Shown one piece after another: positions 5,211 to 23,258 of a stretch of DNA of 41,401 nt. Under the pieces are notes generated by a model. It was given only the letters and a program-made list of their open reading frames with translations, was not told the origin of the DNA and searched no databases. Within the stretch, counting starts at the first letter, position 1. Every line of letters starts with the position of its first letter. The stretch covers positions 1 through 41,401 of the forward strand of contig CAMVNW010000008.1 in the NCBI GenBank assembly GCA_947168965.1, given 5' to 3'. The position numbers were made by a program, and so were the translations under genes. Source of the stretch: an uncultured Caryophanales bacterium (GTDB taxonomy: Bacteria; Bacillota_I; Bacilli_A; RF39; UBA660).

Positions 5211-7616
5211 TTAATTATCAGTTTTTAGTTCGATTTTTTCTATTTTGAAGCCGTTATCTTGGTTTTTGATTTTTATATTTTCAATAAATAGTGTTGCTTT
5301 GAAGTCTTTCATGCAATTATTTAGTGCTTCTTCTATTTCTTTGTCTGTGCTTAATTCTAGATATTCTATTGGTGTTTTTAATGACATGTTGTTGTTTGAT
5401 TTTTCACCTCTTGCTTCACTTATTATTTCAATTATTGAGTTTCCATTTTTTATTTCTTTATTGAAATCATAGTTTAATGGTTTTATTTCTGTTATATGTA
5501 TTGATTGTTTTTCTTTATATAATTCTTGATATATTTCTTCTGTTATAAATGGGAAGAATATACTGAAGTCTTGTAGTAGTTTATATAGTAGTATATATAT
5601 TGTTTTTTGTCCTGAGTATCTTGGAGTACTACCAAATTCTTCTGGTCTATATAGTCTATGTTTTACTATTTCTATGTAGTTGTCACAGAAGTTCCAAAAA
5701 AATTTTTCTAGTGTATTTAGCGCTAGTCCTATTTCGTAGTTATCTAGATGTTTTATGTATGTTTCTTCCATTTTTTGATAGTTTCCTATTATCCATTTAT
5801 CTATGTATTCAAATTCTTTAAAGTCTTTATCTTTATAGTCTTGTAGATGCATTTCTATGAATTTTGAAACGTTCCATATTTTATTTATTAGTTTTTTTCC
5901 TCTTAGGAATGTTTCTTCATTGAATATTATATCTGTTCCTAGTTTACCAGATCCTGCCCAGTATCTTACTACGTCTGCTCCATAGTTTTCTAATAGTTCG
6001 AATGGTTCCATTTTTGAGTTTTGTTTTCTTTTTGATATTTTTTCTCCCTTATTTGCCATAACGAATCCTGAAATCATTATATTGTTCCATGGTTTTATAT
6101 TAAAGTTATAGTAGCTTTTTACTATACTATAGAAGTCCCATGTTCTTATGATATCGTGTGCATTGCATCTTAATCCCATTGGTTTTAGTAGGTTTTCTAG
6201 TGAGTCTTTTTCTTTGTATTTCATGTTTAATAATGGTGTTATACTTGATGTTTGCCATGTATCCATTATGTCTTTTTCTGGTATGAATTCGTTGCATCCA
6301 CAACTACATGGTTGTTTTGGTTTATCTATTAGTGGGTTTACTGGTAGGTCTTCAATATTAGCTAGTATTGTTTTTTTACAGTTTTTACAGTACCATACTG
6401 GAAATGGTACTCCAAAGTATCTTTGTCTTGATATGCACCAGTCCCACATTATGTTTTCTACCCATTCGTTGTATCTAGTATGCATGTGTTTTGGATACCA
6501 GTTTATTTCGTTTCCTAGTTTTATGAAGTCTTCTTTATGATTCATTATGTCTATGAACCATTGATTCATTATTGTGTATTCTACTTCTTTACCACATCTT
6601 TCATGTGTTTGTACTTCGTGTTCTAGTTCTTCTTGTTTTATTAGATATCCTTGTTGTTTAAAGTCTTCTATTATTTTTTCTCTTGCTTGTTTTATTTTTA
6701 GTCCACCGTAGTTAGGTATTTCTTCTACTATTTTTCCATCATTTGTGAATATATTTTTTAGTGGAAGGTTATATTTTTTCCACCATTCTATATCTGTTTG
6801 ATCTCCAAATGTACAGCACATAACTATTCCTGTTCCTTTGTTTTCGTCTACTTTTTCGTCTGCCATTATTGGTACTTCTATGTCTAATATTGGTATATGA
6901 GCTGTTTTACCTATTAGGTGGTTGTTATTTTTATCGTTTGGATTTATGAATATAGCAACTATTGCTGGGATTAGTTCTGGTCTAGTTGTAGCTATTGTGA
7001 ATGTTTCTTTTTCTGTTGTTTCGTAATTGATGTAGTTAAATGTTGTTTTTATTGTTTTTGTTTCTAGTTCTGCTTGTGCGATTGATGTTAAGCATTCGTT
7101 ACACCATAGCGCTGGACTTTCTTTGTGGTAGCATTTGTTTTTTTCTACTAGTTCTATAAAGTTTAGTTGACTTATTTTTTGAGATGATTTACTTACTGTT
7201 TTATAGGCATTATCTATATCTGCACTAAATCCTGCTCGTTTGAATAGTGTTTTGAAGTCGTCTTCGTATTTGTTTGTTGTTTCAAAACATAGTTTATTAA
7301 ATTCTTCTCTTCCTATTTCGTGTGCTCTTTTATTTTGTTCTCTTTCTACTAGTCTTTCACTAGGTAGTCCATTGTCATCAAATCCGAATGGATAGAATAC
7401 GTTATATCCTCTTAGTCTTTTATATCTAGCAATCATTTCTGCTTGTGAGTATGAGAATATGTGCCCTATATGTATTTTTCCATTAACGGTTGGTGGTGGT
7501 GTATCTATTGAGTATATTTCTCTTTGATCTGGTTTAAATTCATAGATTTTGTTTTTATTCCAATAATCTATCCATTTTATTTCTTTTTCTTTGTAATCAT
7601 ATTTTTTATCTAACAT
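5211..7616 (-). CDS. valS: Valyl-tRNA synthetase, archaeal/rickettsial-type
   Basis: An 801-residue class I tRNA synthetase that charges tRNA-Val in the cytoplasm. The HIGH motif is at 49-52 after PPPTVNGK. The CP1 editing domain has TIATTRPE (208-214). Zinc-type Cys pairs are WCNEC (171-175), YCKNC (409-413) and CSCGC (437-441). WDWCISRQRYFGVPFPVWYC is typical. The KMSKS loop is altered to KISKR (526-530), followed by KQNSKMEP. VFYPFGFDDNGLPSERLVE and the ~800-residue length without the long C-terminal coiled coil match the archaeal/alphaproteobacterial ValS subtype rather than the ordinary Bacillus ValS. The start is fixed by GGAGAG seven bases upstream. Expression is T-box controlled, and the GUA specifier supports valine. 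Confidence 0.93.
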   Translation of the reverse strand: MLDKKYDYKEKEIKWIDYWNKNKIYEFKPDQREIYSIDTPPPTVNGKIHIGHIFSYSQAEMIARYKRLRGYNVFYPFGFDDNGLPSERLVEREQNKRAHEIGREEFNKLCFETTNKYEDDFKTLFKRAGFSADIDNAYKTVSKSSQKISQLNFIELVEKNKCYHKESPALWCNECLTSIAQAELETKTIKTTFNYINYETTEKETFTIATTRPELIPAIVAIFINPNDKNNNHLIGKTAHIPILDIEVPIMADEKVDENKGTGIVMCCTFGDQTDIEWWKKYNLPLKNIFTNDGKIVEEIPNYGGLKIKQAREKIIEDFKQQGYLIKQEELEHEVQTHERCGKEVEYTIMNQWFIDIMNHKEDFIKLGNEINWYPKHMHTRYNEWVENIMWDWCISRQRYFGVPFPVWYCKNCKKTILANIEDLPVNPLIDKPKQPCSCGCNEFIPEKDIMDTWQTSSITPLLNMKYKEKDSLENLLKPMGLRCNAHDIIRTWDFYSIVKSYYNFNIKPWNNIMISGFVMANKGEKISKRKQNSKMEPFELLENYGADVVRYWAGSGKLGTDIIFNEETFLRGKKLINKIWNVSKFIEMHLQDYKDKDFKEFEYIDKWIIGNYQKMEETYIKHLDNYEIGLALNTLEKFFWNFCDNYIEIVKHRLYRPEEFGSTPRYSGQKTIYILLYKLLQDFSIFFPFITEEIYQELYKEKQSIHITEIKPLNYDFNKEIKNGNSIIEIISEARGEKSNNNMSLKTPIEYLELSTDKEIEEALNNCMKDFKATLFIENIKIKNQDNGFKIEKIELKTDN

Positions 7617-7720: not shown

Positions 7721-7955
7721 AAAAAAAGAGCAAGTCATCCTAAAGGACGAATTGCTCGTGGTACCACCTTAATTTATAGTATTTCTACTATCTTGAAGTC
7801 TTAATGCGACTAACATTATATCTTACTTTTATTTCAGATATACAACTCCCAAGCTACCTTCAATTAGTTTTCGTTAAGAAAGACTTTCAGTCGGTGATCT
7901 TTCATTCCTACTAACTACTAATCTAATTTACTCCTCTTGTTCTTCGTTTTTATGT
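7721..7955 (-). promoter_or_regulatory. T-box riboswitch (tRNA-Val) controlling valS
   Basis: The T-box sequence AAGGTGGTACCACG is at 7770-7757 (minus strand). The downstream terminator has arms GAGCAA / TTGCTC (7757-7728) followed by seven T. The Stem I region (about 7945-7840) shows AGTCGG/AAAGATC-type distal elements. In the specifier loop GAAG-GTA-GCTTGG, GTA is at 7857-7855 and reads as a valine codon. Uncharged tRNA-Val would pair with the specifier and with the T-box bulge to prevent termination. The layout is standard for the class; the exact Stem I boundaries are approximate. Confidence 0.9.
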
Positions 7956-8002: not shown

Positions 8003-8160
8003 TGCTCTCTTCAGAGGGTGGAATAATTTAACCATTCTTTTGTCCGTCACAGTACGTATTTTCCTTTATAAAATAAAGTTTTGTACACTATAGTTCATTT
8101 TTATAGATTTTTTCTACATACCATTTTAGATACCAAATGGTATGTAAAACTGTACCTAAA
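8003..8160. repeat. Left flank of the restriction island: repeat words and nested inverted repeat
   Basis: This non-coding stretch between the valS promoter and the DUF6119 terminator holds TGCTCTCTTCA (8003-8013). It also has a perfect 12-bp inverted repeat, TACATACCATTT (8115-8126) / AAATGGTATGTA (8135-8146), and the units TTTTAGATACC (8124-8134) and TGGTATGTAAAA (8138-8149). A weaker related unit, TGTACCTAAAA, follows at 8151-8161. Both main words and the unit type recur beyond the other end of the restriction island (15787-15836). No gene is seen here. Confidence 0.55.
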
Positions 8161-8180
8161 ATCTTATATAAAAATGTAAT

Positions 8181-8220
8181 AAAAAAGCATATATAGATTC
8201 GTGGCTATATATGCTTTTTT
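8181..8220. terminator. Strong (possibly bidirectional) terminator after the DUF6119 gene
   Basis: Perfect 16-bp arms, AAAAAAGCATATATAG (8181-8196) and CTATATATGCTTTTTT (8205-8220), with an 8-base loop. A T-run is present in both directions. It closes the restriction island transcript eight bases after the DUF6119 stop. Confidence 0.9.
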
Positions 8221-8227
8221 ATTCTCA

Positions 8228-9823
8228 TTATTGATTATAATAATTAATTCTTATAACAGGAATTTTATTAGCTGATAGAACTTTATTAGACCATTCTGTT
8301 AATTTATTTAAAAACATTATTGATTCAAAGGATAATAAATTTATATTATTGTCATTATCATAAAATTTATTTTTTCCTGTGACAAATAGCCATAAGCCTA
8401 TTTTTTTAACATTCTTATATTTATTTATTAACTCATCAGTATCATATGAATTAGAAACGAATGTGTCAACTGTAAGATCAGATTGATCAATAGCATAGCA
8501 AAAATCTCTTGGAGTACCAACTTTAACGGCATAAATTATGTCGTCTTCTTTAGCTAAATCAGCAATTTCAATTTTAAAGTTTTCTCCCTTGCATATATTT
8601 ACAAGATTTCTATCTAAATTATCAAAATTATTTTTTGCAGATAATTCATTATTAATGGCTTGTTCGCGATATATAGATTTCTTATCATTTTTATCTTTAT
8701 TCTTAACATCAACTAAATTATGTTTTTCTAAGTATTCTTTATACCAATCACTTGAAAAATCATCTTTTTTATCATATTTTTCTATTTTTATATTTTTTAA
8801 TCCATCTTTTATATTGTTATAAAAGTCATTATTATAATAATATATATCTCCATCATATAAAACATATCTATCATTCCTATATTTAAAATCAAATGTAATA
8901 GTTTCATTAAACGATTTAATAAAACTAAAACCTTCATCTGATATATATTTAATTTTTAAATATTTATATATCCCACTTGTATCGATATTGTGCTTACTTA
9001 TAAACTCTTTTATATAATAGGTATTGAGAAATGGAATGTCTTCTCTAATATTTTTGTACGCCAATTCCGTTTTAAAACAGTCATCAAAAAATATAGAACT
9101 TCCTAGTATATTCATATCTTCTAACATAAAATCTGCATCTTCAATTTTTTCAGACAAGACACTTGTCAAATAATTCCATATTTCATCTAGTAATTCTTCG
9201 TTTTTCAACTTTAAGAATAATGGTATTGGCCTTTTTTCTTTTCTATTGCTTATTGTATTTAATATATCAATTATTTTATCTAATGAATCTATCATTTCAT
9301 CAACATTTATTCTTACTGATTTACCAATTCCAATACACTTTCCTAAATTTTCTATTTCGTCTGGTATTATTTCCAAATTCACTACTGACTCGCCCTTATC
9401 AACTACAATTAAATCTGAGTTGGTCAATGTTCTAACTAAACTATTTGTGCTTCCATTAAGTATTTTCGAAGCCTTTCTTTTTACTTTAGAAACCTCAACA
9501 CGTTTAGCAATATTCATAGGAAATTCAGAATCACAATATTTTTGAACAAGAGAACTACTCATACCATAAGTAATTGCATACATATCCAGACTATTATCAG
9601 CAATTAAGATTCCTTTCAAACTATCTTTATCGATAGAAATATCAACCCCAAATTCATTTAAGATTTTTTGCCATGATATAGTTGAATTATCTTTTTTACT
9701 ATAATATAGTTTTAAATCATAATCGCCGCTTTTAATTGATTTATTATTTGTAATATAGCCAGATTCTAACATTTCTTTGATTAATATATCTTTTTTTGTT
9801 ATTTTAAAAATATTATATTGCAA
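8228..9823 (-). CDS. DUF6119 / TIGR04141 family sporadically distributed protein
   Basis: About 531 residues, cytosolic. Signs of the TIGR04141 (DUF6119) family are an N-terminal LQYNIFKITKKD strand, GILIADNSLDMYAITYG (about 75-95), then FPMNIAKRVEVSKVKRK. Near residue 425 the FKIEIADLAKEDDIIYAVKVG block corresponds to the family's E-x-C/A-D-L ... HVK segment. The function of this family is not known; members occur patchily near restriction and other defence genes, as here. The start is a choice: an in-frame GTG at 9832 sits on top of the AAAGGA site, whereas a TTG at 9823 is six bases after it, so I take the TTG. The same AGTAAAGGAAGTGGT leader precedes the KAP gene. A terminator-like repeated hairpin (9846-9893) separates it from the upstream restriction genes. 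Confidence 0.7.
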   Translation of the reverse strand: MQYNIFKITKKDILIKEMLESGYITNNKSIKSGDYDLKLYYSKKDNSTISWQKILNEFGVDISIDKDSLKGILIADNSLDMYAITYGMSSSLVQKYCDSEFPMNIAKRVEVSKVKRKASKILNGSTNSLVRTLTNSDLIVVDKGESVVNLEIIPDEIENLGKCIGIGKSVRINVDEMIDSLDKIIDILNTISNRKEKRPIPLFLKLKNEELLDEIWNYLTSVLSEKIEDADFMLEDMNILGSSIFFDDCFKTELAYKNIREDIPFLNTYYIKEFISKHNIDTSGIYKYLKIKYISDEGFSFIKSFNETITFDFKYRNDRYVLYDGDIYYYNNDFYNNIKDGLKNIKIEKYDKKDDFSSDWYKEYLEKHNLVDVKNKDKNDKKSIYREQAINNELSAKNNFDNLDRNLVNICKGENFKIEIADLAKEDDIIYAVKVGTPRDFCYAIDQSDLTVDTFVSNSYDTDELINKYKNVKKIGLWLFVTGKNKFYDNDNNINLLSFESIMFLNKLTEWSNKVLSANKIPVIRINYYNQ

Positions 9824-9845
9824 ACAAACCACTTCCTTTACTACT

Positions 9846-9893
9846 AAAAAACGCCACTACAAAAACTTCTCAACAAAGCCTGTACTAGCGCTC
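9846..9893 (-). repeat. Repeated leader hairpin, copy C (upstream of DUF6119)
   Basis: On the minus strand: AGCGCTAGTACAGGC, a variable loop, GTTTTTGTAGTGGCG, then a T-run. The arms pair with G-U wobbles, as in a rho-independent terminator. The sequence is nearly identical to hairpins at 18161-18205 and 23202-23247. Unlike those, it has no promoter or palindrome of its own, because it abuts the stop of the DUF262/DUF1524 gene (9898). Confidence 0.85.
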
Positions 9894-9897
9894 TTTT

Positions 9898-12108
9898 TTA
9901 TTCTTTTTCTATAAACAATAAACAAAATAATGATATGTCTAATTGATATCTATTAAATAAATCTCTTATCCAATCAAAAATTGTAATTCTACTATAATTT
10001 GTATAAACAAATAATGATGGTAAAATTTCTTCTTGATGTTCATTTTCCTTTGTTCTTGAAAATCTTATAGTTTTACCTCTTTCATATGTATAATTACTAT
10101 TTGCCAAATCATCCAAAACAGAATTATCTATATTGTATAATAGTTTGATGATTTCTTTAAATATGCTTCTATAACTGTCAGCTCTATACTTTGTTTCTTC
10201 AAATTGGAACCCATATAACTTATAAGCAGGATTATTTTCAAATTCGTCAGCATTATCTTCAGGATTGTCTATATAAAACTCATAAAATTTTTCAAATTCT
10301 AATGTAGTATCTATATCTTTAGGATAAAGAAACTCCTTCATAATTACTTTTGATAATCTTTCTGCACGTTTTTCAATTTCATTTTCATTCCAAATATCTA
10401 TGTTGTTTTCTTCATTATTCTTTAATTCTTCATTTAATTTAACAATTTTAGTTTCACCTGTAATAAGCATATCATTATAACGTTTTTTCTTATTCAAGAA
10501 TGAATCATTACTATATTCAGAATTATAACCAGTAATGGATAAATTACCTAATGTATGAACGTATTTATCATATATTTCTTGATAATTATCACCCAAACTT
10601 GTTTTCCACTGAGTGCTTAATGTCTCAGGCATTATATGCTCTATAGTTAATTCAGACATATCAACTGGCTCTTTTCCACTATTTTCTATCAAATCAAAGA
10701 AATATCTTAATATTCTTGTTTTAGCATTTGCATACATATTACTATATAGCAAGCCCTCTTTAAACATATTATCATTAGGCATCCTGTCTTCTGTTTTTAA
10801 TGTACACAAATATGCCTCACATGCCTTAAAATAATAGTTAAAATTATTTTTATTTTTTTCAAATATTTTATTATATAAAGATGCATAAAATCTACGTAAG
10901 CTTGATGAAGCAACATTTGCTATATTACGTCTCATAGCATAATTACCAAATAATCTTATGATGTTATTAAATTCTTTTTCTTTATTTATTAATTCTAATT
11001 CTTCGTCCTTTGTTAACACTATTTTAACTTCTTCACCTAGATCATTTTTGCTTTTCATATGTAATTTTCTAATATCATCAAAATCATTACATACTTTTAA
11101 CATAAATGGATATATAGTTCTATGTTGCAAAATATTAAATATATTGCATAATTGATTTGTTTCTTTATCATAATCTTTAGAATTATTCAAAACTAGTAAT
11201 TTATAATACTGAGCATATTGAACTATTTCACTAAATATCTTTTCAATACCTTCAATTCCTATTATGTTACTATTAATATAATATTTTTTAAAATTTTCAT
11301 ATACTTTCTTTTCTTCTATGTACCTTGTATCTTTTGATACCAAAAAATCATAAAAGAATTTCTCAATATTATCTTTTCCAATTAAACTTTCAATTGTAAT
11401 CCAATAGTTTTTATATATTTCAGCCTGCTTACCAACATCTAAAATCCCCATTAATAAAAAATTTCTGATAAGGTCTGCAGTTGTTAATTTAACTCCCGTT
11501 GAATTAATACTTTCAAATATTTTTTGAGGAGAATCTCCCTCATTTAAAACTATTTCAACTATTTCTAATCTATCTATTCCTTCTACTAATTTATCAGGAG
11601 CCCATTGTTCAGATTCAATAGTCTTCTTTATTAATGTTTTAAAATGATTATAGTTAATTACAACTTTTGATGATGTATCTAAATTAGTTGTATTTCCCAT
11701 CAATACTTTTTCTAGTTCAGAATTATCATTATCACTATTTTTAAGTTTTAGTTTATATCTTTCTTCACAGTTTTCGTTATATATATTTTGTCTAATTTTC
11801 TTTTTTGTAATATTTTCAGGATCTTTAATTAAATCATCAATAGCTTTCAATAATAACATAATTGTTGTTAATCTTTGTTGTCCATCAATTATCGGACAAC
11901 TTTTTATATCATTACGTTTTGTTGTTGAATAAACTAAGCTTCCTAAAAAATGGTTTCTCTCATTTTTTATACTACTAACTATATCATTATACAATAACTC
12001 ACAGTTTTCTTTTTCCCAAGTATAATTTCTTTGATATACCGGAATCGTATATTGAACATCCGTTTTCTTTATTATATCATCATATAACATTCTATTATTT
12101 GCTTCCAT
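9898..12108 (-). CDS. GmrSD-like DUF262/DUF1524 restriction protein
   Basis: About 736 residues. The N-terminal DUF262 (ParB/Srx-like NTPase) domain has YTIPVYQRNYTWEKENCELL and the diagnostic IDGQQRLTT (about 74-82). FESINSTGVKLTTADLIRNF follows at about 198. The C-terminal DUF1524 HNH-type nuclease has IEHIMPETLSTQW (His about 491) and HTLGNLSITGYNSEYSN. This single-chain layout is that of GmrSD/BrxU/SspE-type enzymes that restrict modified or specially marked phage DNA. A further ~170-residue C-terminal region is unassigned. The longest frame opens with GTG at 12117; I choose ATG 12108 because GAGGTGG lies five bases before it. It begins just after the endonuclease stop (12120), so it is in the same operon. 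Confidence 0.88.
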   Translation of the reverse strand: MEANNRMLYDDIIKKTDVQYTIPVYQRNYTWEKENCELLYNDIVSSIKNERNHFLGSLVYSTTKRNDIKSCPIIDGQQRLTTIMLLLKAIDDLIKDPENITKKKIRQNIYNENCEERYKLKLKNSDNDNSELEKVLMGNTTNLDTSSKVVINYNHFKTLIKKTIESEQWAPDKLVEGIDRLEIVEIVLNEGDSPQKIFESINSTGVKLTTADLIRNFLLMGILDVGKQAEIYKNYWITIESLIGKDNIEKFFYDFLVSKDTRYIEEKKVYENFKKYYINSNIIGIEGIEKIFSEIVQYAQYYKLLVLNNSKDYDKETNQLCNIFNILQHRTIYPFMLKVCNDFDDIRKLHMKSKNDLGEEVKIVLTKDEELELINKEKEFNNIIRLFGNYAMRRNIANVASSSLRRFYASLYNKIFEKNKNNFNYYFKACEAYLCTLKTEDRMPNDNMFKEGLLYSNMYANAKTRILRYFFDLIENSGKEPVDMSELTIEHIMPETLSTQWKTSLGDNYQEIYDKYVHTLGNLSITGYNSEYSNDSFLNKKKRYNDMLITGETKIVKLNEELKNNEENNIDIWNENEIEKRAERLSKVIMKEFLYPKDIDTTLEFEKFYEFYIDNPEDNADEFENNPAYKLYGFQFEETKYRADSYRSIFKEIIKLLYNIDNSVLDDLANSNYTYERGKTIRFSRTKENEHQEEILPSLFVYTNYSRITIFDWIRDLFNRYQLDISLFCLLFIEKE

Positions 12109-12119
12109 TACATCCACCT

Positions 12120-13685
12120 CTACATTAGATTTTTAAGGATATCAAAAATATTTTTTTCATAATCCTTTGTGTATTGTTTCATATCTTCAAATATATTCTT
12201 CTCAACGCATATTTTATTAAACTCTTCCTTTTTATAGCACTTAGCGCTAAAACTATTATCTGAATGATCTTGAATATAATCAATTATTAAAGCATTGAAA
12301 AATCTATGTGTATCTTCATGAATAACTGGTGCTATTAAAGACATATATTTTTCATCCCAAGGTGTATCAGAAATATGTCTGAATAGATTTGATGTTTCAT
12401 AATTTAATTGTTGAGCCTTATTTCGGATAAGAGTTACCTCAATCAACCAATATTTACCTTTGCCAACAACTTCAATATCACCACAATTACCTGGTGCATG
12501 TGAAATTGGAATACCATATGAATCTGTCTTGTAATTAGGTTTAATAGAGAAAGAATCTCCATATACTAAATATAATAATATTGATATAAAAAATTCGAAT
12601 TGTAAAGGATCATCAATATATTTAAATTCTTTATTCTTGCCTTTTACTCCTATATTATTAATTAACTCTAATGTTTTCTCTTGATTTAATTTATAATCCA
12701 TTATAACTTTTTTTAGCACAAAATTATAATCATAAACATCTACGTTTGATTTTCTATTAGCATATACAACTTTCATTTCATCTTCAGTTAAATAACTAAT
12801 TTTATCAAAATAATCTTTAGGATTTAATTTCTCTTCTTCACTAACTACATATGTCTTATCCATAAAATAATCAACAAATTTTTCAGTATCCTTATTTATT
12901 TCTATTAGCAATATACCATCATTAACAATATTAACAAAACCTGTTATTCTTAGCATTCTTAATACTGTGTCTGGATAATCATTAATAACGGTATTTTCTT
13001 GATTTTGTTTTCCATAGTTTTCTTTCAAATAAGTATATACACTATTAGTTGTAGGGAAAACATTATTTTCAATCAATTCAATAAATTTATCAGAATCATC
13101 TTCTCTACTAAAAAGAGAAAGTATAAATTGATTATAGCTTAGTTTTTTATTCTTGGCAGATAATTTTCTTAAAACTTTAATAATAAATTTAAAATAATTA
13201 AAATCATTACTGACATTTCTATATGGCGACTTCCAATTATATTTCATTGTTTGAATTCCAAAAGCTTCTTGTGGATCAATAACATTTTTTAATAATTTCT
13301 TTGCAACATCACCTATAATTAATTTTTCATTATATTGTGTATAAACAAATCCGAATTCTGATAGTGTTCTCATATAAGTCCAGAATCTAGATTGATATCC
13401 TTTTGGAAAATGACCATCTCGATTTCGTGTTTTATTTATCTCGATTATTTTGGCTTTAATAGCTTCTTCAGTCTTTAAACTATTCAAATCAAGGCTATCA
13501 CTCTTAACAACCTCCTGAGAATAAATATCATATAGAATATCAAGAATAACATTGTCATTTAAAATATACCCTTCATATTCATTTAATACCTCTAAAACTG
13601 ATTTTAAACGTTCTGGATTTCTTATTGCTGTATCAAAATTTAATTCCTTATATTCAGGATTTCTCCTAGTTCCCATTCTTGTCAT
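12120..13685 (-). CDS. Type IIS restriction endonuclease, AlwI-like
   Basis: About 521 residues, partner of the adjacent fused methyltransferase. The N-terminus (MGTRRNPEYKELNFDTAIRNPERLKSVLEVLNEYEG) and the catalytic block HAPGNCGDIEV (about 396-406) then YWLIEVTL (413-419), with Q-x-N-Y-E-T and R-H following, match what I recall of the AlwI family. The Asp in GDIEV and the Glu in IEVTL would be the PD-(D/E)XK metal ligands, with Thr where Lys is usual. The frame extends upstream to 13733, but that part overlaps the methyltransferase. ATG 13685 is preferred, giving a 20-nt overlap; its nearest AAGGAGG is 15 bases off, suggesting translational coupling. Cleavage specificity cannot be stated from sequence. 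Confidence 0.65.
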   Translation of the reverse strand: MTRMGTRRNPEYKELNFDTAIRNPERLKSVLEVLNEYEGYILNDNVILDILYDIYSQEVVKSDSLDLNSLKTEEAIKAKIIEINKTRNRDGHFPKGYQSRFWTYMRTLSEFGFVYTQYNEKLIIGDVAKKLLKNVIDPQEAFGIQTMKYNWKSPYRNVSNDFNYFKFIIKVLRKLSAKNKKLSYNQFILSLFSREDDSDKFIELIENNVFPTTNSVYTYLKENYGKQNQENTVINDYPDTVLRMLRITGFVNIVNDGILLIEINKDTEKFVDYFMDKTYVVSEEEKLNPKDYFDKISYLTEDEMKVVYANRKSNVDVYDYNFVLKKVIMDYKLNQEKTLELINNIGVKGKNKEFKYIDDPLQFEFFISILLYLVYGDSFSIKPNYKTDSYGIPISHAPGNCGDIEVVGKGKYWLIEVTLIRNKAQQLNYETSNLFRHISDTPWDEKYMSLIAPVIHEDTHRFFNALIIDYIQDHSDNSFSAKCYKKEEFNKICVEKNIFEDMKQYTKDYEKNIFDILKNLM

Positions 13686-15609
13686 AATTAGTAACAAATA
13701 CCTCCTTAGATCCGGCTTTAACAGTATTGTCATTAAAGCTTATATAATTACTGTTTATTTCGTAAGTATTATATTTTTTTGACCATTTTTCAAAAATTGT
13801 ATTTTTCTTTTCTTTATGGTATACCAAATTAGTTATACCAAATCGAATTCCTTTCATATCTAATTCATCTAACAGATTATATAATTGTTTTTCATCATCC
13901 TCGTTCCATAATTTATTGTATTCACTTTGACTGATAAGATATGGGGGGTCTAATAAAACATAATCATTTTTTCCTAATTCTAAAGATTTTAAAAATTCCT
14001 TATAATCTTTATTAAAATATTCAATCTTAATACGCTTTATATAATCAAAATAATAATTTAATGAATTATATACATTACTATTAAAATCAACATTTCCAAC
14101 TGGCAAATTAAATTGTCCCTTTGCATTAAACCTTGTCATATGATTAAATCCATATATTAATAATAAATATAATTTAAGAGTATTTGTTTTATCTTTATTA
14201 AAATCATTTCTCAATTGTAAATAAGCGTCTTTATTATATTTTGCATAATATGTTTTCTTATGTAATGCTTTAAGTTCTTCTGGAACTAAATGGCCATTAT
14301 ATGAACAAGATAGTCCATAATGATTTATAGTTTTAAAAATCTTTTCAAAGAATTTTTCTTTGTCAGGAGAATATTTTTTTAACATTTCATGTATAGAAAT
14401 AATACTTGAATCTATATCATTAACTATATAATTTTTAGCTTTGACATTTAAGAATGATGAACCTCCACCTACAAATGGCTCAACATAATTAACAATTCCT
14501 TCAGGCATATATTTTTTGATTTCAGGCATTAATTTATATTTATCACCAACATAAAATAATGGTGATCTATAGGATATTTCCTTCTTAATATCTTTCTTAA
14601 CTTTAGTTATAAATATAAACTCTTTATGATTATTTAAATCAGTTTTTCCCGCATCAAATGCCTTATATTTTTTTTCAAATATTTGTGTTTCACCTTTACT
14701 AGATAATATTGTTTCAATCTCCTCCAGTGTAATTTTGTTCTTTGATGAACTACTTTTAGAATTATATGTATTATTATAAGAAACAACTATGTATTTAGCA
14801 TCTAAGCTTTGAACCAAATCATTAAACGCTATTGGAGCAGTAACCTTACAATAATCAGACATATTTTCTTCTTTAGGTTTTAAAGCTGTTCCAAATAACT
14901 CAGGCTTCTTCCATTCAGTAATATTCTCCAGAATATGATAGAATCTACTATATTGTCTTGAATTATATGGAGGATCAATGTATGCAACATCGCATTTAAC
15001 CCTTTTAGCTAAGTCATTTGAATCTTCTCTATATATTTCAATTACCTTTTTTTTCTTTTCATCTTTAGGATTAATTAATTCAAATACAAAAGATGACTTT
15101 ATTTCTTTTATTTTTCTATAAGCATCATAGTGACCAATTGTATTAGCTATTCTATCTAAAGAATATAATAGCGAAGCAATTAATATACTATATTCTTTAT
15201 AATTGATTTTGTTAGATCTTTTTAACTTTTCTATATCTTCCCTTATATATCCAATTTTTAAAGAATCATCATAATTAAAAAACTTATTTCCAAAATTAAT
15301 CGAAACATAATTATCTTTAAGTTTGGATGAGTCTAATTTCTGATATCTAATCTTTATATCATTTATCAATCCAGCGTTATATTCTTCATTTAAAAAAAAT
15401 GCATTATATATAATATTGTTTGAATATAAAAAGTCATTAATAATAAATCTATCATATTCATCAAACATATAATCCGTTACAGACCCAGTTCCGGCAAATA
15501 CATCAAAAAATGAGTGACAATTTTTACAATTTTTCTTTATTAAATCAGATATCCAATCCATTAATTTATATTTATTACCTATGTATCTACGATTTTGTAT
15601 ATCAAACAT
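13666..15609 (-). CDS. Fused two-domain N6-adenine DNA methyltransferase (type IIS, M.FokI/M.AlwI-like)
   Basis: About 647 residues made of two D12-class adenine methyltransferases in one chain. Domain 1 has RRYIGNKYKLMDWI, FDVFAGTGSV (about 36-45) and YIDPPYNSRQY (about 210-220). Domain 2 starts at SPLFYVGDKYKLMPEI and has FVGGGSSF (about 379-386) and LLDPPYLISQ (about 552-561). An asymmetric type IIS site needs each strand methylated by a separate activity, which such fusions provide. The product protects host DNA from the endonuclease encoded next. The track start at 15651 is rejected for ATG 15609, which has AGGAGG five bases upstream. A TATAAT (15655-15650) may be its -10. It heads the restriction operon. 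Confidence 0.92.
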   Translation of the reverse strand: MFDIQNRRYIGNKYKLMDWISDLIKKNCKNCHSFFDVFAGTGSVTDYMFDEYDRFIINDFLYSNNIIYNAFFLNEEYNAGLINDIKIRYQKLDSSKLKDNYVSINFGNKFFNYDDSLKIGYIREDIEKLKRSNKINYKEYSILIASLLYSLDRIANTIGHYDAYRKIKEIKSSFVFELINPKDEKKKKVIEIYREDSNDLAKRVKCDVAYIDPPYNSRQYSRFYHILENITEWKKPELFGTALKPKEENMSDYCKVTAPIAFNDLVQSLDAKYIVVSYNNTYNSKSSSSKNKITLEEIETILSSKGETQIFEKKYKAFDAGKTDLNNHKEFIFITKVKKDIKKEISYRSPLFYVGDKYKLMPEIKKYMPEGIVNYVEPFVGGGSSFLNVKAKNYIVNDIDSSIISIHEMLKKYSPDKEKFFEKIFKTINHYGLSCSYNGHLVPEELKALHKKTYYAKYNKDAYLQLRNDFNKDKTNTLKLYLLLIYGFNHMTRFNAKGQFNLPVGNVDFNSNVYNSLNYYFDYIKRIKIEYFNKDYKEFLKSLELGKNDYVLLDPPYLISQSEYNKLWNEDDEKQLYNLLDELDMKGIRFGITNLVYHKEKKNTIFEKWSKKYNTYEINSNYISFNDNTVKAGSKEVFVTNYDKNGN

Positions 15610-15649
15610 ATTTACCTCCTGATTTGTACTTAATATATTTCCTATAAAC

Positions 15650-15655
15650 ATTATA
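15650..15655 (-). promoter_or_regulatory. Possible -10 element of the restriction operon
   Basis: TATAAT on the minus strand, about 40 bases upstream of the methyltransferase start. No convincing -35 is seen at 16-18 bases, so the promoter is tentative. Confidence 0.4.
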
Positions 15656-15786
15656 TCATATAACCTTCTGTTTTTCTCATCATTTTATATGAAATATAAT
15701 AATTAATTACGAATGATTTTGTGATTACAAATTGATGTGATAATGTATTTTTAGAGGCAAAAGTGAACTGGCGTGAACAATTTGTA

Positions 15787-15836
15787 TGCTCTCTTCAAAA
15801 TGCACTATCCTGCTGGTATGTAAAAGGTATCTAAAA
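15787..15836. repeat. Right flank of the restriction island: repeat words matching the left flank
   Basis: TGCTCTCTTCA (15787-15797) and two tandem units, TGGTATGTAAAA (15814-15825) and GGTATCTAAAA (15826-15836). The same words occur in the same order at 8003-8149, where the second unit is inverted. A nearby GTGAAC-TGGC-GTGAAC direct repeat lies at about 15764-15779. The stretch 15661-15904 has no gene. Confidence 0.55.
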
Positions 15837-15840
15837 ATTT

Positions 15841-15870
15841 AAAAAAGCCTTATAAAATAAGGGCTTTTAA
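15841..15870 (-). terminator. Terminator after the NERD/zinc-finger gene
   Basis: AAAAGCC-TTAT and ATAA-GGGCTTTT arms, followed by a T-run on the minus strand. Confidence 0.75.
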
Positions 15871-15904
15871 GATACAATTTAGGACCCAGGGGGAAGAGAA
15901 CAAT

Positions 15905-16633
15905 TCAATTTCTGGTATATTTACATTTAGGATAATTAGAGCATCCTGTGAATGGTCCATTTTTTCCAGTTTTTCCGACTAAGTATGCTCCGCATAGAGG
16001 GCACTTATTTTTATTATCAATTTCTTTTTGTTCTTTTAATTCTTTTGTTATTTTATTATGCTGTTTTCTTTCTTTTTTGTCAATTATATTTATTGATTTA
16101 ATTTTATTATATATTTCTTCTTCATTATCAATTTTTTTAATATTATATGATTTTATTTTTGCTAATAAATTATTAAGGCCTACTACTTTATTTGAATTTA
16201 CTTTTATTCTTGCCCTACTAGTTATGCACACAATTGAAATAAATAAGTTTTCATCTAAATTTAGTATGTTTTTTAGAGTTTGTATATGTCCATAATTTTG
16301 ATGAATAGGATTTTTAATATAATATGTTTTCTTTGACAATTTGTATGTCCAGTTATCAACATAATCATCTCCTATTATACAAGCATTAAGATGTTTTGTT
16401 TCTATAACAAATATTCCATATTTAGAAATAACTATATGATCTATTTGGTGTGTTTTTCCATCTTCTGTTTTTATCATTAAATCATTGATTACTTTATATT
16501 CATTGTTTAATCTTTTTAGTTCTTTTTTAGTCCAAAATTCTCCTGCTTTTCCAGCAATCTTTCCCCTGTTTTTATAAAAAATTATAGATATTACCAGGAA
16601 TCCCCAACTTAGTAATAAACATATATAATACAT
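15905..16633 (-). CDS. NERD-domain membrane protein with topoisomerase-type zinc finger
   Basis: A 242-residue protein. Residues 2-20 form one membrane anchor. A NERD (nuclease-related) domain follows: GKAGEFWTKKELKRL, HQIDHIVISKYGIFVIETKH (about 66-86, the D...E-x-K type metal-binding core) and the NWTY...IKNPIHQNYGHIQTL block. Residues about 205-242 form a C4 topoisomerase-type zinc finger (CPLCGAYLV, then GCSNYPKCKYT). NERD proteins are presumed DNA-processing nucleases, but targets are unknown. It lies just outside the restriction island and has its own terminator. Confidence 0.85.
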   Translation of the reverse strand: MYYICLLLSWGFLVISIIFYKNRGKIAGKAGEFWTKKELKRLNNEYKVINDLMIKTEDGKTHQIDHIVISKYGIFVIETKHLNACIIGDDYVDNWTYKLSKKTYYIKNPIHQNYGHIQTLKNILNLDENLFISIVCITSRARIKVNSNKVVGLNNLLAKIKSYNIKKIDNEEEIYNKIKSINIIDKKERKQHNKITKELKEQKEIDNKNKCPLCGAYLVGKTGKNGPFTGCSNYPKCKYTRN

Positions 16634-18160: not shown

Positions 18161-18205
18161 AAAAAAACGCCAATACAAAAACTCCTTAAAGCCTGTACTA
18201 GCGCT
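18161..18205 (-). repeat. Repeated leader hairpin, copy A (upstream of the Schlafen-like gene)
   Basis: Minus strand: AGCGCTAGTAC pairs with GTATTGGCGTT (11 bp including G-U pairs) around a loop containing AAGGAG, followed by a seven-T run. It has the form of an intrinsic terminator lying between promoter and gene, i.e. an attenuator position. It is almost identical to the copy at 23202-23247. Confidence 0.9.
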
Positions 18206-18217
18206 TACTAATTAAAT

Positions 18218-18254: not shown

Positions 18255-19262
18255 TCAAATATTTAAATTTTCATCATATTTTATACCTAAGTTATTTCTT
18301 ATTTCATTTATTTTTTTAGATGCATATATTCTAGCATTATTAGCTCCATTTTCTAGTATTTCTAATAATTCTTTACTATATCTATATTTCTTATATTTTT
18401 CTTGTATTGGAAGAATAAATTCTTCTATTATATTTGCTAAATCATTTTTAAATTCTTTATAGTTTTTATCTTTATACATATCTTCTATTTCTTTTATACT
18501 TTTATTTGTAATTGCTGAATATATTGATATTAAATTAGATATTCCTGGTTTATTTATTTCATCGTAATATATTTTATTTTCACTATCTGTTTTTGATTTC
18601 ATTATTTTATTTTTTGTTATTTCTATATCATCTAGTATAAATATTATTCCTTTATCATCTATAGGTGATGATTTACTCATTTTTTCTAATGGATTTTGTA
18701 GGTTCATTATTCTAGCTCCTATTTCTGGTACATAGTACTCTGGTAGTTTAAATGTATTTTTATATCTTTTATTGAATCTCTCACCTATATCTCTAGTTAT
18801 TTCTATGTGTTGTATTTGATCATTACCAACTGGTACTATTTCAGCATCATATAGTAATATGTCTGCAGCCATTAATGTTGGATATATTAATAATCCTAAG
18901 TCTATTCCATTAGATCCTTGTTTTTGTTTTTTTGATTTATATTGAGTCATTCTAGATAGTTCTCCTACTCTACATTGGAAGGCTATTAAGAATCCTAGTT
19001 CTGTGTGTTCTAATACATCACTTTGTACAAAGAAGTTTGTTTTTTTAGGGTCTACTCCACATGCTAAATAGATTGCTGCTAAATCTAGTATTCTATCATG
19101 AATATTCTTTGGTTCTTGATATGTAGTTAATCCATGTAGGTCTGCTATAAATATATAAGAATTATATTTATCTTGTAATTTAACAAAGTTTTTAATTGCA
19201 CCTAAATAATTTCCTAAAGTAAAATTTCCTGTAGGTTGTATACCTGTAATCATTGTTTTCAT
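18255..19262 (-). CDS. trpS: Tryptophanyl-tRNA synthetase
   Basis: A 335-residue class Ic synthetase that charges tRNA-Trp. It has TGIQPTGNFTLGNYLGAIKN with the HIGH-equivalent TLGN (15-18), SDVLEHTELGFL, PVGNDQIQHIEITRDIGERFN (about 144-164) and KMSKS (194-198). Length is normal. AAAGGA lies upstream of the ATG. A T-box leader with a UGG specifier precedes it (19341-19575). It ends at TGA 18257-18255, directly before copy A of the defence promoter module. Confidence 0.97.
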   Translation of the reverse strand: MKTMITGIQPTGNFTLGNYLGAIKNFVKLQDKYNSYIFIADLHGLTTYQEPKNIHDRILDLAAIYLACGVDPKKTNFFVQSDVLEHTELGFLIAFQCRVGELSRMTQYKSKKQKQGSNGIDLGLLIYPTLMAADILLYDAEIVPVGNDQIQHIEITRDIGERFNKRYKNTFKLPEYYVPEIGARIMNLQNPLEKMSKSSPIDDKGIIFILDDIEITKNKIMKSKTDSENKIYYDEINKPGISNLISIYSAITNKSIKEIEDMYKDKNYKEFKNDLANIIEEFILPIQEKYKKYRYSKELLEILENGANNARIYASKKINEIRNNLGIKYDENLNI

Positions 19263-19340: not shown

Positions 19341-19575
19341 AAAAAAGTACCCATGCCCAAAAATAGGACAAGAGTACTTGTTATGCCACCTATTCATATG
19401 CTATCACATACGTTCTTTATTAACGGTAAGAAACTCCGTATTCCTCTACTATTATTTCGAAGAATCTCTCATTAGTCCATTCATTAGTTATTCATTATGT
19501 CTTTCCATCAACCAGACACTTTCTATAAACTTCAAACTAATTACTTCTCTAAATCGCTGATTTGTTTAAATATAT
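19341..19575 (-). promoter_or_regulatory. T-box riboswitch (tRNA-Trp) controlling trpS
   Basis: Minus strand: Stem I with GTGTCTGGTTGATGG/AAAGACA distal part, then GAA-TGG-AC in the specifier loop (TGG at 19479-19477 = Trp codon). The T-box bulge is a variant AATAGGTGGCATAACAAG (19394-19377). The terminator pairs AAGTAC with GTACTT and GTCC with GGGC and ends in a T-run at 19341. The T-box core is AGGTGGCA rather than AGGGTGGCA. Confidence 0.9.
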
Positions 19576-23093: not shown

Positions 23094-23114
23094 AATACCA
23101 CTTCCTTTACTTCT

Positions 23115-23163
23115 TAAAAGCATCAATACAAACACTTATAATAAAATTGTACTTGTGCTTTTT
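23115..23163 (-). repeat. Diverged leader hairpin, copy D (next to the KAP start)
   Basis: Minus strand: AGCACAAGTAC pairs with GTATTGATGCT (9 of 11 pairs) around an AT-rich loop, then TTTT. It keeps the AGTAC/GTATTG arms of copies A-C but is otherwise changed. The leader after it (AGTAAAGGAAGTGGT, 23111-23097) is identical to that after copy C. A TATAAT at 23178-23173 may give it its own promoter. Confidence 0.65.
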
Positions 23164-23201
23164 CTTAATTGAATTATATCATACGTTTATCTCAAAAGTT
23201 T

Positions 23202-23247
23202 AAAAAAACGCCAATACAAAAACTCTTTCAAGCCTGTACTAGCGCTT
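23202..23247 (-). repeat. Repeated leader hairpin, copy B (upstream of KAP)
   Basis: The same arms as copy A (AGCGCTAGTAC / GTATTGGCGTT, seven-T run). It differs from A only at two loop positions (CTTTCAAG versus CTCCTTAAAG region). Confidence 0.9.
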
Positions 23248-23258
23248 ACTAACTAAAT

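What the first reader, a model, noticed from the sequence alone, without database searches (positions are those of the whole stretch)
8228..15609. Compact restriction island: fused methyltransferase, AlwI-like nuclease, GmrSD-like nuclease, DUF6119
In one operon-like run the island encodes a system against unmodified DNA (type IIS) and a DUF262/DUF1524 enzyme of the class that attacks modified DNA. DUF6119 follows. The two restriction types together would close the escape route of phages that modify their DNA. DUF6119 has no known function; this context supports a defence role.
Basis: partly seen in the sequence, partly recalled or inferred. Interest (0 to 1): 0.65.

Follow-up and report, generated by a model that had tools for sequence, protein, structure and literature searches.

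The report
Restriction island with shared leader hairpin

Summary
The four genes are real: double D12 methyltransferase, AlwI-type nuclease, GmrSD-type nuclease, DUF6119. The first three form a tight operon, and methyltransferase-AlwI-GmrSD recurs in three other genomes of the family. The four-gene order was not found elsewhere: DUF6119 is a separate module behind the operon. DUF6119 nevertheless has a recurrent, non-exclusive link with restriction genes. In a prokaryote-wide sample of 80 loci, about a quarter have type I restriction genes nearby, often exactly between hsdS and hsdR. Its C-terminal part has an invariant E..N/ExxD/xVK/Q core that looks like a PD-(D/E)xK nuclease domain (inferred; fold search inconclusive).

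Main new result: between GmrSD and DUF6119 lies a ~52-nt hairpin plus U-run. Copies occur in 60 of 291 family genomes. In 47 copies examined it usually follows a -10 box and stands 4-35 nt before the start codon. The downstream genes include Gabija GajA, Shedu, Avs4, Tmn, Schlafen, KAP, OLD and kinase genes, and DUF6119 itself three times. It has no Rfam match. I read it as a transcription attenuator or RNA-protein target shared by defence genes. Regulation is inferred, not shown.

The parts
13666..15609 (-). Fused double D12 adenine-N6 methyltransferase (M1-M2), 647 aa; the two halves probably modify the two strands of an asymmetric site
   Evidence: Pfam D12 two stretches; PADLOC type II MTase 3e-132; DPPY at two places; second half matches T4 Dam/DpnM structures
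12120..13685 (-). AlwI-family type IIS restriction endonuclease, 521 aa
   Evidence: RE_AlwI 5e-49; motif DIEV..WLIEVT; overlaps the methyltransferase by 20 nt, as in Staphylococcus and Helicobacter plasmids where the methyltransferases are separate genes
9898..12108 (-). Single-chain GmrSD-family (DUF262-DUF1524) enzyme, 736 aa, family motifs kept
   Evidence: GmrSD_N and GmrSD_C; motifs VYQRNYTW, IIDGQQRLTT, FESIN, EHIMPE, LGNLSITGYN, NDSFLNKK against PMC4619093
9845..9898 (-). Leader hairpin copy 1 (hairpin + U-run), between the GmrSD stop codon and the DUF6119 ribosome site
   Evidence: R1 covariance model 70 bits; MFE z -5.2 for the surrounding 86 nt
8228..9823 (-). DUF6119/TIGR04141 protein, 531 aa, divergent member; invariant E/N/D/ExxD/xVK/Q core kept
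   Evidence: Pfam and NCBIfam; alignment of 73 members
18161..18211 (-). Leader hairpin copy 2, directly before a Schlafen/AlbA_2 gene
   Evidence: R1 71.9 bits
16928..18145 (-). Schlafen AlbA_2 gene under leader copy 2
   Evidence: Pfam SLFN_AlbA_2 4.8e-24; start checked
23202..23252 (-). Leader hairpin copy 3 with its promoter; 111 bp at 92% to the promoter-leader unit of copy 2
   Evidence: R1 68.8 bits; direct repeat D1
23114..23165 (-). Leader hairpin copy 4, in tandem with copy 3, directly before the KAP NTPase gene
   Evidence: R1 62 bits
21798..23093 (-). KAP P-loop NTPase gene (PADLOC candidate PDC-S20) under leader copies 3 and 4
   Evidence: Pfam KAP_NTPase 9.6e-33; PDC-S20 1.7e-48
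15636..15906 (-). Upstream flank and promoter (TATGATATAAT) of the restriction operon, shared (81%) with the upstream flank of the type I/DUF6119 island of genome G657
8003..8254 (-). Downstream flank with terminator, shared (74%) with the downstream flank of the G657 type I/DUF6119 island

Best explanation
A defence island built from modules. Module 1 is a type IIS restriction-modification operon: the fused methyltransferase marks both strands of an asymmetric site and the AlwI-type nuclease cuts unmarked DNA. A GmrSD-type enzyme in the same operon probably cuts DNA carrying modified bases. Module 2 is DUF6119, a restriction-associated defence protein with a probable PD-(D/E)xK-like nuclease core in its C-terminal third, acting as a second-line effector. 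DUF6119 stands behind a 52-nt leader hairpin with a U-run. Copies of this leader precede many different defence genes in this family, including the Schlafen and KAP genes of this window. The most likely role of the leader is premature termination (attenuation): the hairpin keeps the gene low and is bypassed when a signal or RNA-binding factor alters it. Shown: gene content, motifs, recurrence, leader position, orientation and association with defence families. Inferred: enzyme activities, the nuclease domain of DUF6119, attenuation and its trigger.
For: Families and motifs. Recurrence of MTase-AlwI-GmrSD in G664 (86/67/88% identity), G731 and G665. DUF6119 with restriction genes: plasmids with hsdM-hsdS-DUF6119-hsdR (hsdS-DUF6119-hsdR); 131 immediate neighbours of 79 loci give HSDR_N 9, Methylase_S 9, N6_Mtase 3 and type I genes in 18 of 80 pieces; family loci with C5 MTases, McrBC or HsdRMS. 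DUF6119 core invariant across canonical and divergent members; confident model of a canonical member, pLDDT 92. Leader: 60 of 291 family genomes, 46 of 150 genera, 1-4 copies each. In 47 copies examined, 41 have a sense start codon within 35 nt (random position 1.6%); exact TATAAT upstream 25 against 6.1 expected and extended -10 in 20; sense strand folds better in 47 of 47; 95.8% of cells paired. Downstream genes; 12 of 20 scanned have PADLOC E<1e-20 against at most 6 of 40 control genes (Fisher p 6e-4).
Against: No expression, cleavage or phage data. The leader's covariation is thin (8 cells with changes on both sides; the covariation score does not exceed shuffles), so sequence conservation rather than structure carries most of the signal. 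At least three lower-scoring leader copies precede secreted proteins (one with a G5 domain) that are not obvious defence genes, and several downstream genes have no family match. The window's own DUF6119 leader lacks a clear -10 box, so there it may act only between operon genes. Foldseek gave no significant sensible fold for DUF6119, and the usual acidic residue of the (D/E)xK motif is H or A. Expected restriction-site avoidance was not seen: GGATC is 1.49 of expectation given its parts. The 20 genes scanned with PADLOC were not a random draw.
Confidence: 0.6

Rival explanations
1. The four genes are one coordinated four-gene defence system in which DUF6119 works only together with the restriction enzymes.
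For: All on one strand and consecutive; DUF6119 is found inside type I operons in other bacteria.
Against: No second genome with the four-gene order among 291 family genomes searched for AlwI and DUF6119; terminator-like leader between GmrSD and DUF6119; DUF6119 has its own promoter-leader in L212 and L005; it stands alone in prophage D14B.
Confidence: 0.12
2. The hairpin is a mobile element (MITE-like) or a recombination site that spreads defence genes rather than a regulator.
For: Strong sequence conservation across genera, sporadic distribution, a promoter-leader unit duplicated in the window; island flanks shared with a different restriction island.
Against: Low copy number (1-4), fixed sense orientation, fixed place before the ribosome site and usually after a -10 box, folding well only as sense RNA. 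A recombination site would not need these.
Confidence: 0.15
3. The hairpin is an ordinary intrinsic terminator of the preceding gene that happens to lie before defence genes.
For: In several copies it overlaps the stop codon of the preceding gene (GmrSD here; the 289-aa ORF in L186).
Against: In many copies a TATAAT box lies about 10 nt upstream, so the hairpin begins near the transcript's own 5' end; sequence conservation goes far beyond what termination needs.
Confidence: 0.13
4. DUF6119 is not a nuclease but a DNA-binding or scaffold subunit for restriction complexes.
For: Second acidic residue of (D/E)xK missing; no significant fold match; position between hsdS and hsdR.
Against: E, ExxD, K and Q invariant over very divergent members, which is typical of catalysis; structure matches with the highest probability include R.BspD6I small subunit and OkrAI.
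Confidence: 0.35

Closest known systems
AlwI/FokI-type type IIS restriction-modification with two adenine methyltransferase domains (M.FokI; MhoVII, PMC12898733)
   Same: Double adenine methyltransferase plus a nuclease for an asymmetric site
   Different: Two D12 halves fused here (MhoVII has a YhdJ-type and a D12-type half); specificity unknown; followed by GmrSD
TgvAB in V. cholerae VPI-2 (PMC11411939) and BrxU beside BREX (PMC8565348)
   Same: GmrSD-type enzyme physically nested with a restriction or BREX system; proposed or shown to be complementary against modified and unmodified phages
   Different: There type I or BREX partner; here a type IIS partner and single-chain GmrSD; no phage data here
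GmrSD family (PMC4619093), including RloF in type I loci
   Same: All sequence motifs; restriction neighbourhood
   Different: Substrate unknown; no close solved relative by sequence
DUF6119 / TIGR04141 (no paper about the family found in the held library)
   Same: Family membership by two curated models
   Different: Window member is divergent; this report adds neighbourhood, conserved core and leader
Regulators of defence islands such as RptR (PMC12255303)
   Same: Shared control of restriction-linked defence genes
   Different: RptR is a DNA-binding repressor; here a candidate RNA leader shared by unrelated defence genes

Membership tests
AlwI-type type IIS restriction-modification | RE_AlwI nuclease domain with the catalytic-type acidic motif | tested here: met
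   Pfam 5e-49; DIEV..WLIEVT
AlwI-type type IIS restriction-modification | Two adenine methyltransferase domains with the catalytic DPPY | tested here: met
   Two D12 stretches and two DPPY
AlwI-type type IIS restriction-modification | Recognition of GGATC | tested here: inconclusive
   Second MTase half is T4 Dam-like, but GGATC is not avoided; GATC is avoided (0.55) and GGATG 0.69
GmrSD type IV restriction enzymes | DUF262 with QR, DGQQR, FxxxN and DUF1524 with (E/D)H-N-N | tested here: met
   motifs from PMC4619093
GmrSD type IV restriction enzymes | Modification-dependent cleavage | not testable with these tools
   needs enzyme assay
DUF6119/TIGR04141 | Score above curated cut-offs | tested here: met
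   55.4 against 27 bits; 53 against 35 bits
PD-(D/E)xK nuclease superfamily | alpha-beta core with D and (D/E)xK | tested here: inconclusive
   Invariant ExxD and K, but H/A instead of D/E; predicted helix and strand order compatible; Foldseek not significant
Rfam families | Match of the leader to any family | tested here: not met
   none at gathering; best at E<=1 is a chance mir-6130, 16.8 bits
Transcription attenuator (intrinsic terminator in a 5' leader) | Hairpin followed by U-run between promoter and ribosome site | tested here: met
   (promoter-like box in about half to two thirds of copies; the window's DUF6119 copy lacks a clear one)
Transcription attenuator (intrinsic terminator in a 5' leader) | Conditional termination in the cell | not testable with these tools
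   needs RNA mapping or reporters

The most novel reading that the evidence does not exclude
A previously undescribed RNA leader, restricted as far as seen to one family of small-genome bacteria, is shared by many unrelated antiviral defence genes and puts them under one common switch: an RNA-level defence regulon. DUF6119 is one of its members and is itself a restriction-linked nuclease effector.
Probability: 0.45. Interest if true: 0.8.

Novelty: new variant of a known kind. Interest (0 to 1): 0.62.

Why it matters
How bacteria keep many costly, toxic defence genes quiet until infection is poorly understood; the defence-island regulator found in the literature searched is a DNA-binding protein. 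A single conserved leader in front of Gabija, Shedu, Avs4, Tmn, Schlafen, KAP, OLD, kinase and DUF6119 genes would be a common RNA-level control point. It would also be a practical marker: genes behind it are defence candidates even when nothing else is known about them. For DUF6119, the report gives three independent reasons to call it a defence gene (restriction neighbours, prophage carriage, shared leader) and names the residues to mutate.

Tried and rejected
Genome-contig scans with protein alignments failed for lack of conserved stretches, so a degenerate DNA pattern was used; residues fixed by that pattern were not counted as conserved. Restriction-site avoidance as a test of GGATC specificity: inconclusive. 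Rfam: no match. Exact leader pattern in viral contigs: none. R1 outside the family: only 29-bit matches, treated as chance. Structure of the window's DUF6119: low confidence (69.6), not used for conclusions. Shared island flanks as widely spread mobile ends: the left-flank search in 117 genomes gave only short, terminator-sized matches besides the window itself, so mobility is left open. Phage and plasmid searches with the window's DUF6119: one unannotated faecal contig next to a SIR2-like gene.

Full report
Observation. The island is as described. On the minus strand run a fused double D12 methyltransferase (13666-15609), an AlwI-family nuclease (12120-13685), a single-chain GmrSD-family enzyme (9898-12108) and a DUF6119/TIGR04141 protein (8228-9823). 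Start codons were adjusted to the ribosome sites. Methyltransferase and AlwI overlap by 20 nt, AlwI and GmrSD are 11 nt apart; DUF6119 is 74 nt behind GmrSD. The window is one whole contig of a 1.08 Mb assembly of about 26% GC.

The restriction operon. The methyltransferase has two complete halves; the second resembles T4 Dam. In plasmids of Staphylococcus and Helicobacter the same AlwI module occurs with separate methyltransferases and without GmrSD or DUF6119, so it is an ordinary self-contained type IIS system. The GmrSD protein keeps the motifs listed for the family in PMC4619093. In this bacterial family 22 of 291 genomes have an AlwI match; methyltransferase-AlwI-GmrSD in the same order occurs in G664 (86/67/88% identity), G731 and G665, whereas G736 has a 359-aa gene and a reverse transcriptase-protease gene there and G715 has neither. 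GmrSD is thus a recurrent third gene; the fourth position varies.

DUF6119. No paper about the family was found in the held library. It is in about 2-3% of genomes of the class and family. In a pattern-based sample of 80 loci from many phyla, 79 gave the gene. Among 131 immediate neighbours Pfam finds HSDR_N 9, Methylase_S 9 and N6_Mtase 3; 18 of 80 pieces of at most 8 kb hold type I genes. If 1% of genes were type I genes, 18 of 131 would have p 2e-15 (the 1% is my assumption). Annotated plasmids show hsdS-DUF6119-hsdR-SprT. Others carry NACHT or AbiH neighbours, and one prophage carries it alone beside an integrase. In this family four of six intact or partial loci lie beside restriction genes (window, G003, G056, G657), one beside what looks to me like a Wadjet-type locus, one without.

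DUF6119 core. In 62 canonical and 11 other members, E376, N380 (two exceptions), E409, D412, K424 and Q438 (numbering of L005) are invariant or nearly so, including in the window protein; the residue before V-K is H in canonical and A, C or S in divergent ones. H422, K424 and the S/H/L/F/Q/G of the following stretch were fixed by the search pattern in the canonical set, but K and Q are invariant in the unselected divergent set too. A canonical member is predicted with pLDDT 92; the core lies on a helix, two strands and a helix. Foldseek against solved structures gives no convincing match; by probability the best sensible ones are R.BspD6I small subunit and OkrAI. I infer a PD-(D/E)xK-like domain, perhaps with a variant active site.

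The leader. The stretch between GmrSD and DUF6119 folds far better than shuffled sequence. A covariance model from eight copies finds four copies in the window: before DUF6119, before a Schlafen/AlbA_2 gene and two in tandem before a KAP NTPase gene. The promoter-leader unit of the Schlafen gene and of the KAP gene is a 111-bp repeat at 92%. In the family, 60 of 291 genomes (46 of 150 genera) have 1-4 copies; outside it only marginal matches were seen. In 47 copies (the 40 best fetched plus seven others) 41 have a sense start codon within 35 nt, against 1.6% of random positions; exact TATAAT lies upstream in 25 against 6.1 in shuffles, with a peak 10-11 nt before the hairpin; the sense RNA folds better than the antisense in all 47, as expected from the G-U pairs in the arms.

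Genes behind the leader. They include Gabija GajA (two by PADLOC) and other OLD-type TOPRIM ATPases, Shedu SduA, Avs4, Tmn, PD-T4-6-type kinase (two), Schlafen AlbA_2 (two), SLFN-g3 helicase, KAP (two), Ppl-like and other PHP-ATPase-like genes, DUF3644 (PDC-S19), PDC-S46, PDC-M49A, Mrr_cat, and DUF6119 three times (window, G056, G657). Of 20 scanned with PADLOC, 12 reach E<1e-20; of 40 random long genes of this genome at most 6 do, matching models such as DndA/SspA and mad3 (Fisher p 6e-4). The 20 were chosen to include both well and poorly annotated ones, not at random. At least three weaker copies precede secreted proteins, one with a G5 domain, and several downstream genes have no family match.

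Mechanism. Hairpin plus U-run near the 5' end of the transcript, before the ribosome site, is the anatomy of an attenuator. The strict sequence conservation of both arms suggests that a protein or RNA also reads it. In the window's DUF6119 copy, and in several copies that overlap the end of the preceding gene, no clear promoter lies between, so there the hairpin would set the level of the last gene. No RNA data exist here; this step is inference.

Flanks. 271 bp upstream and about 250 bp downstream of the island are shared (81% and 74%) with the flanks of a type I/DUF6119 island in G657, among different neighbour genes. This suggests that such islands move or exchange content, but other examples were not found in a partial search.

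Novelty and score. The restriction part is a new member of known kinds, in a combination I did not find described. DUF6119 as restriction-linked defence gene is a supported, untested proposal. The leader is, as far as I can tell from Rfam and the literature searched, undescribed, and is the part that deserves follow-up.

Noticed in passing
window 5211-7616 with T-box 7740-7953; 18255-19262 with T-box 19361-19566: Two T-box-controlled aminoacyl-tRNA synthetase genes (valS, trpS) lie among defence genes. The valS is only about 30% identical to its best matches in two same-genus genomes and seems to be the only valS in this assembly, which suggests replacement by transfer.
   Followed up: partly
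L186 11568-12490 and similar copies L280, L281, L283, L284, L291-L293: In a subset of loci the leader hairpin is preceded by the same short conserved sequence, which in L186 is the end of a 289-aa ORF resembling Fic-like ORFs of other loci; the following gene differs (Shedu, Mrr_cat, Avs4-like).
   Followed up: partly
own genome, about 430 kb sampled (L217-L236 and window): GATC is strongly under-represented (0.55 of expectation) while GGATC is over-represented given its parts; CACTG/CAGTG is the most avoided pentamer (0.44).
   Followed up: no
L302, L307, L310: A variant of the leader (GTGCTAGTACAG...TTTGTGCTGGCAC, with compensatory arm changes) precedes small secreted proteins with the motif RGCCSHHGG, one of them with a G5 domain.
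   Followed up: no
L186 9441-11105: Reverse transcriptase fused to a trypsin-like protease close behind an AlwI restriction operon; a candidate defence gene.
   Followed up: no
L036 (Pseudomonas phage vB_PaeS-D14B) 6815-8524: DUF6119 carried alone in a phage genome next to an integrase gene, as expected of a prophage-borne defence gene.
   Followed up: no
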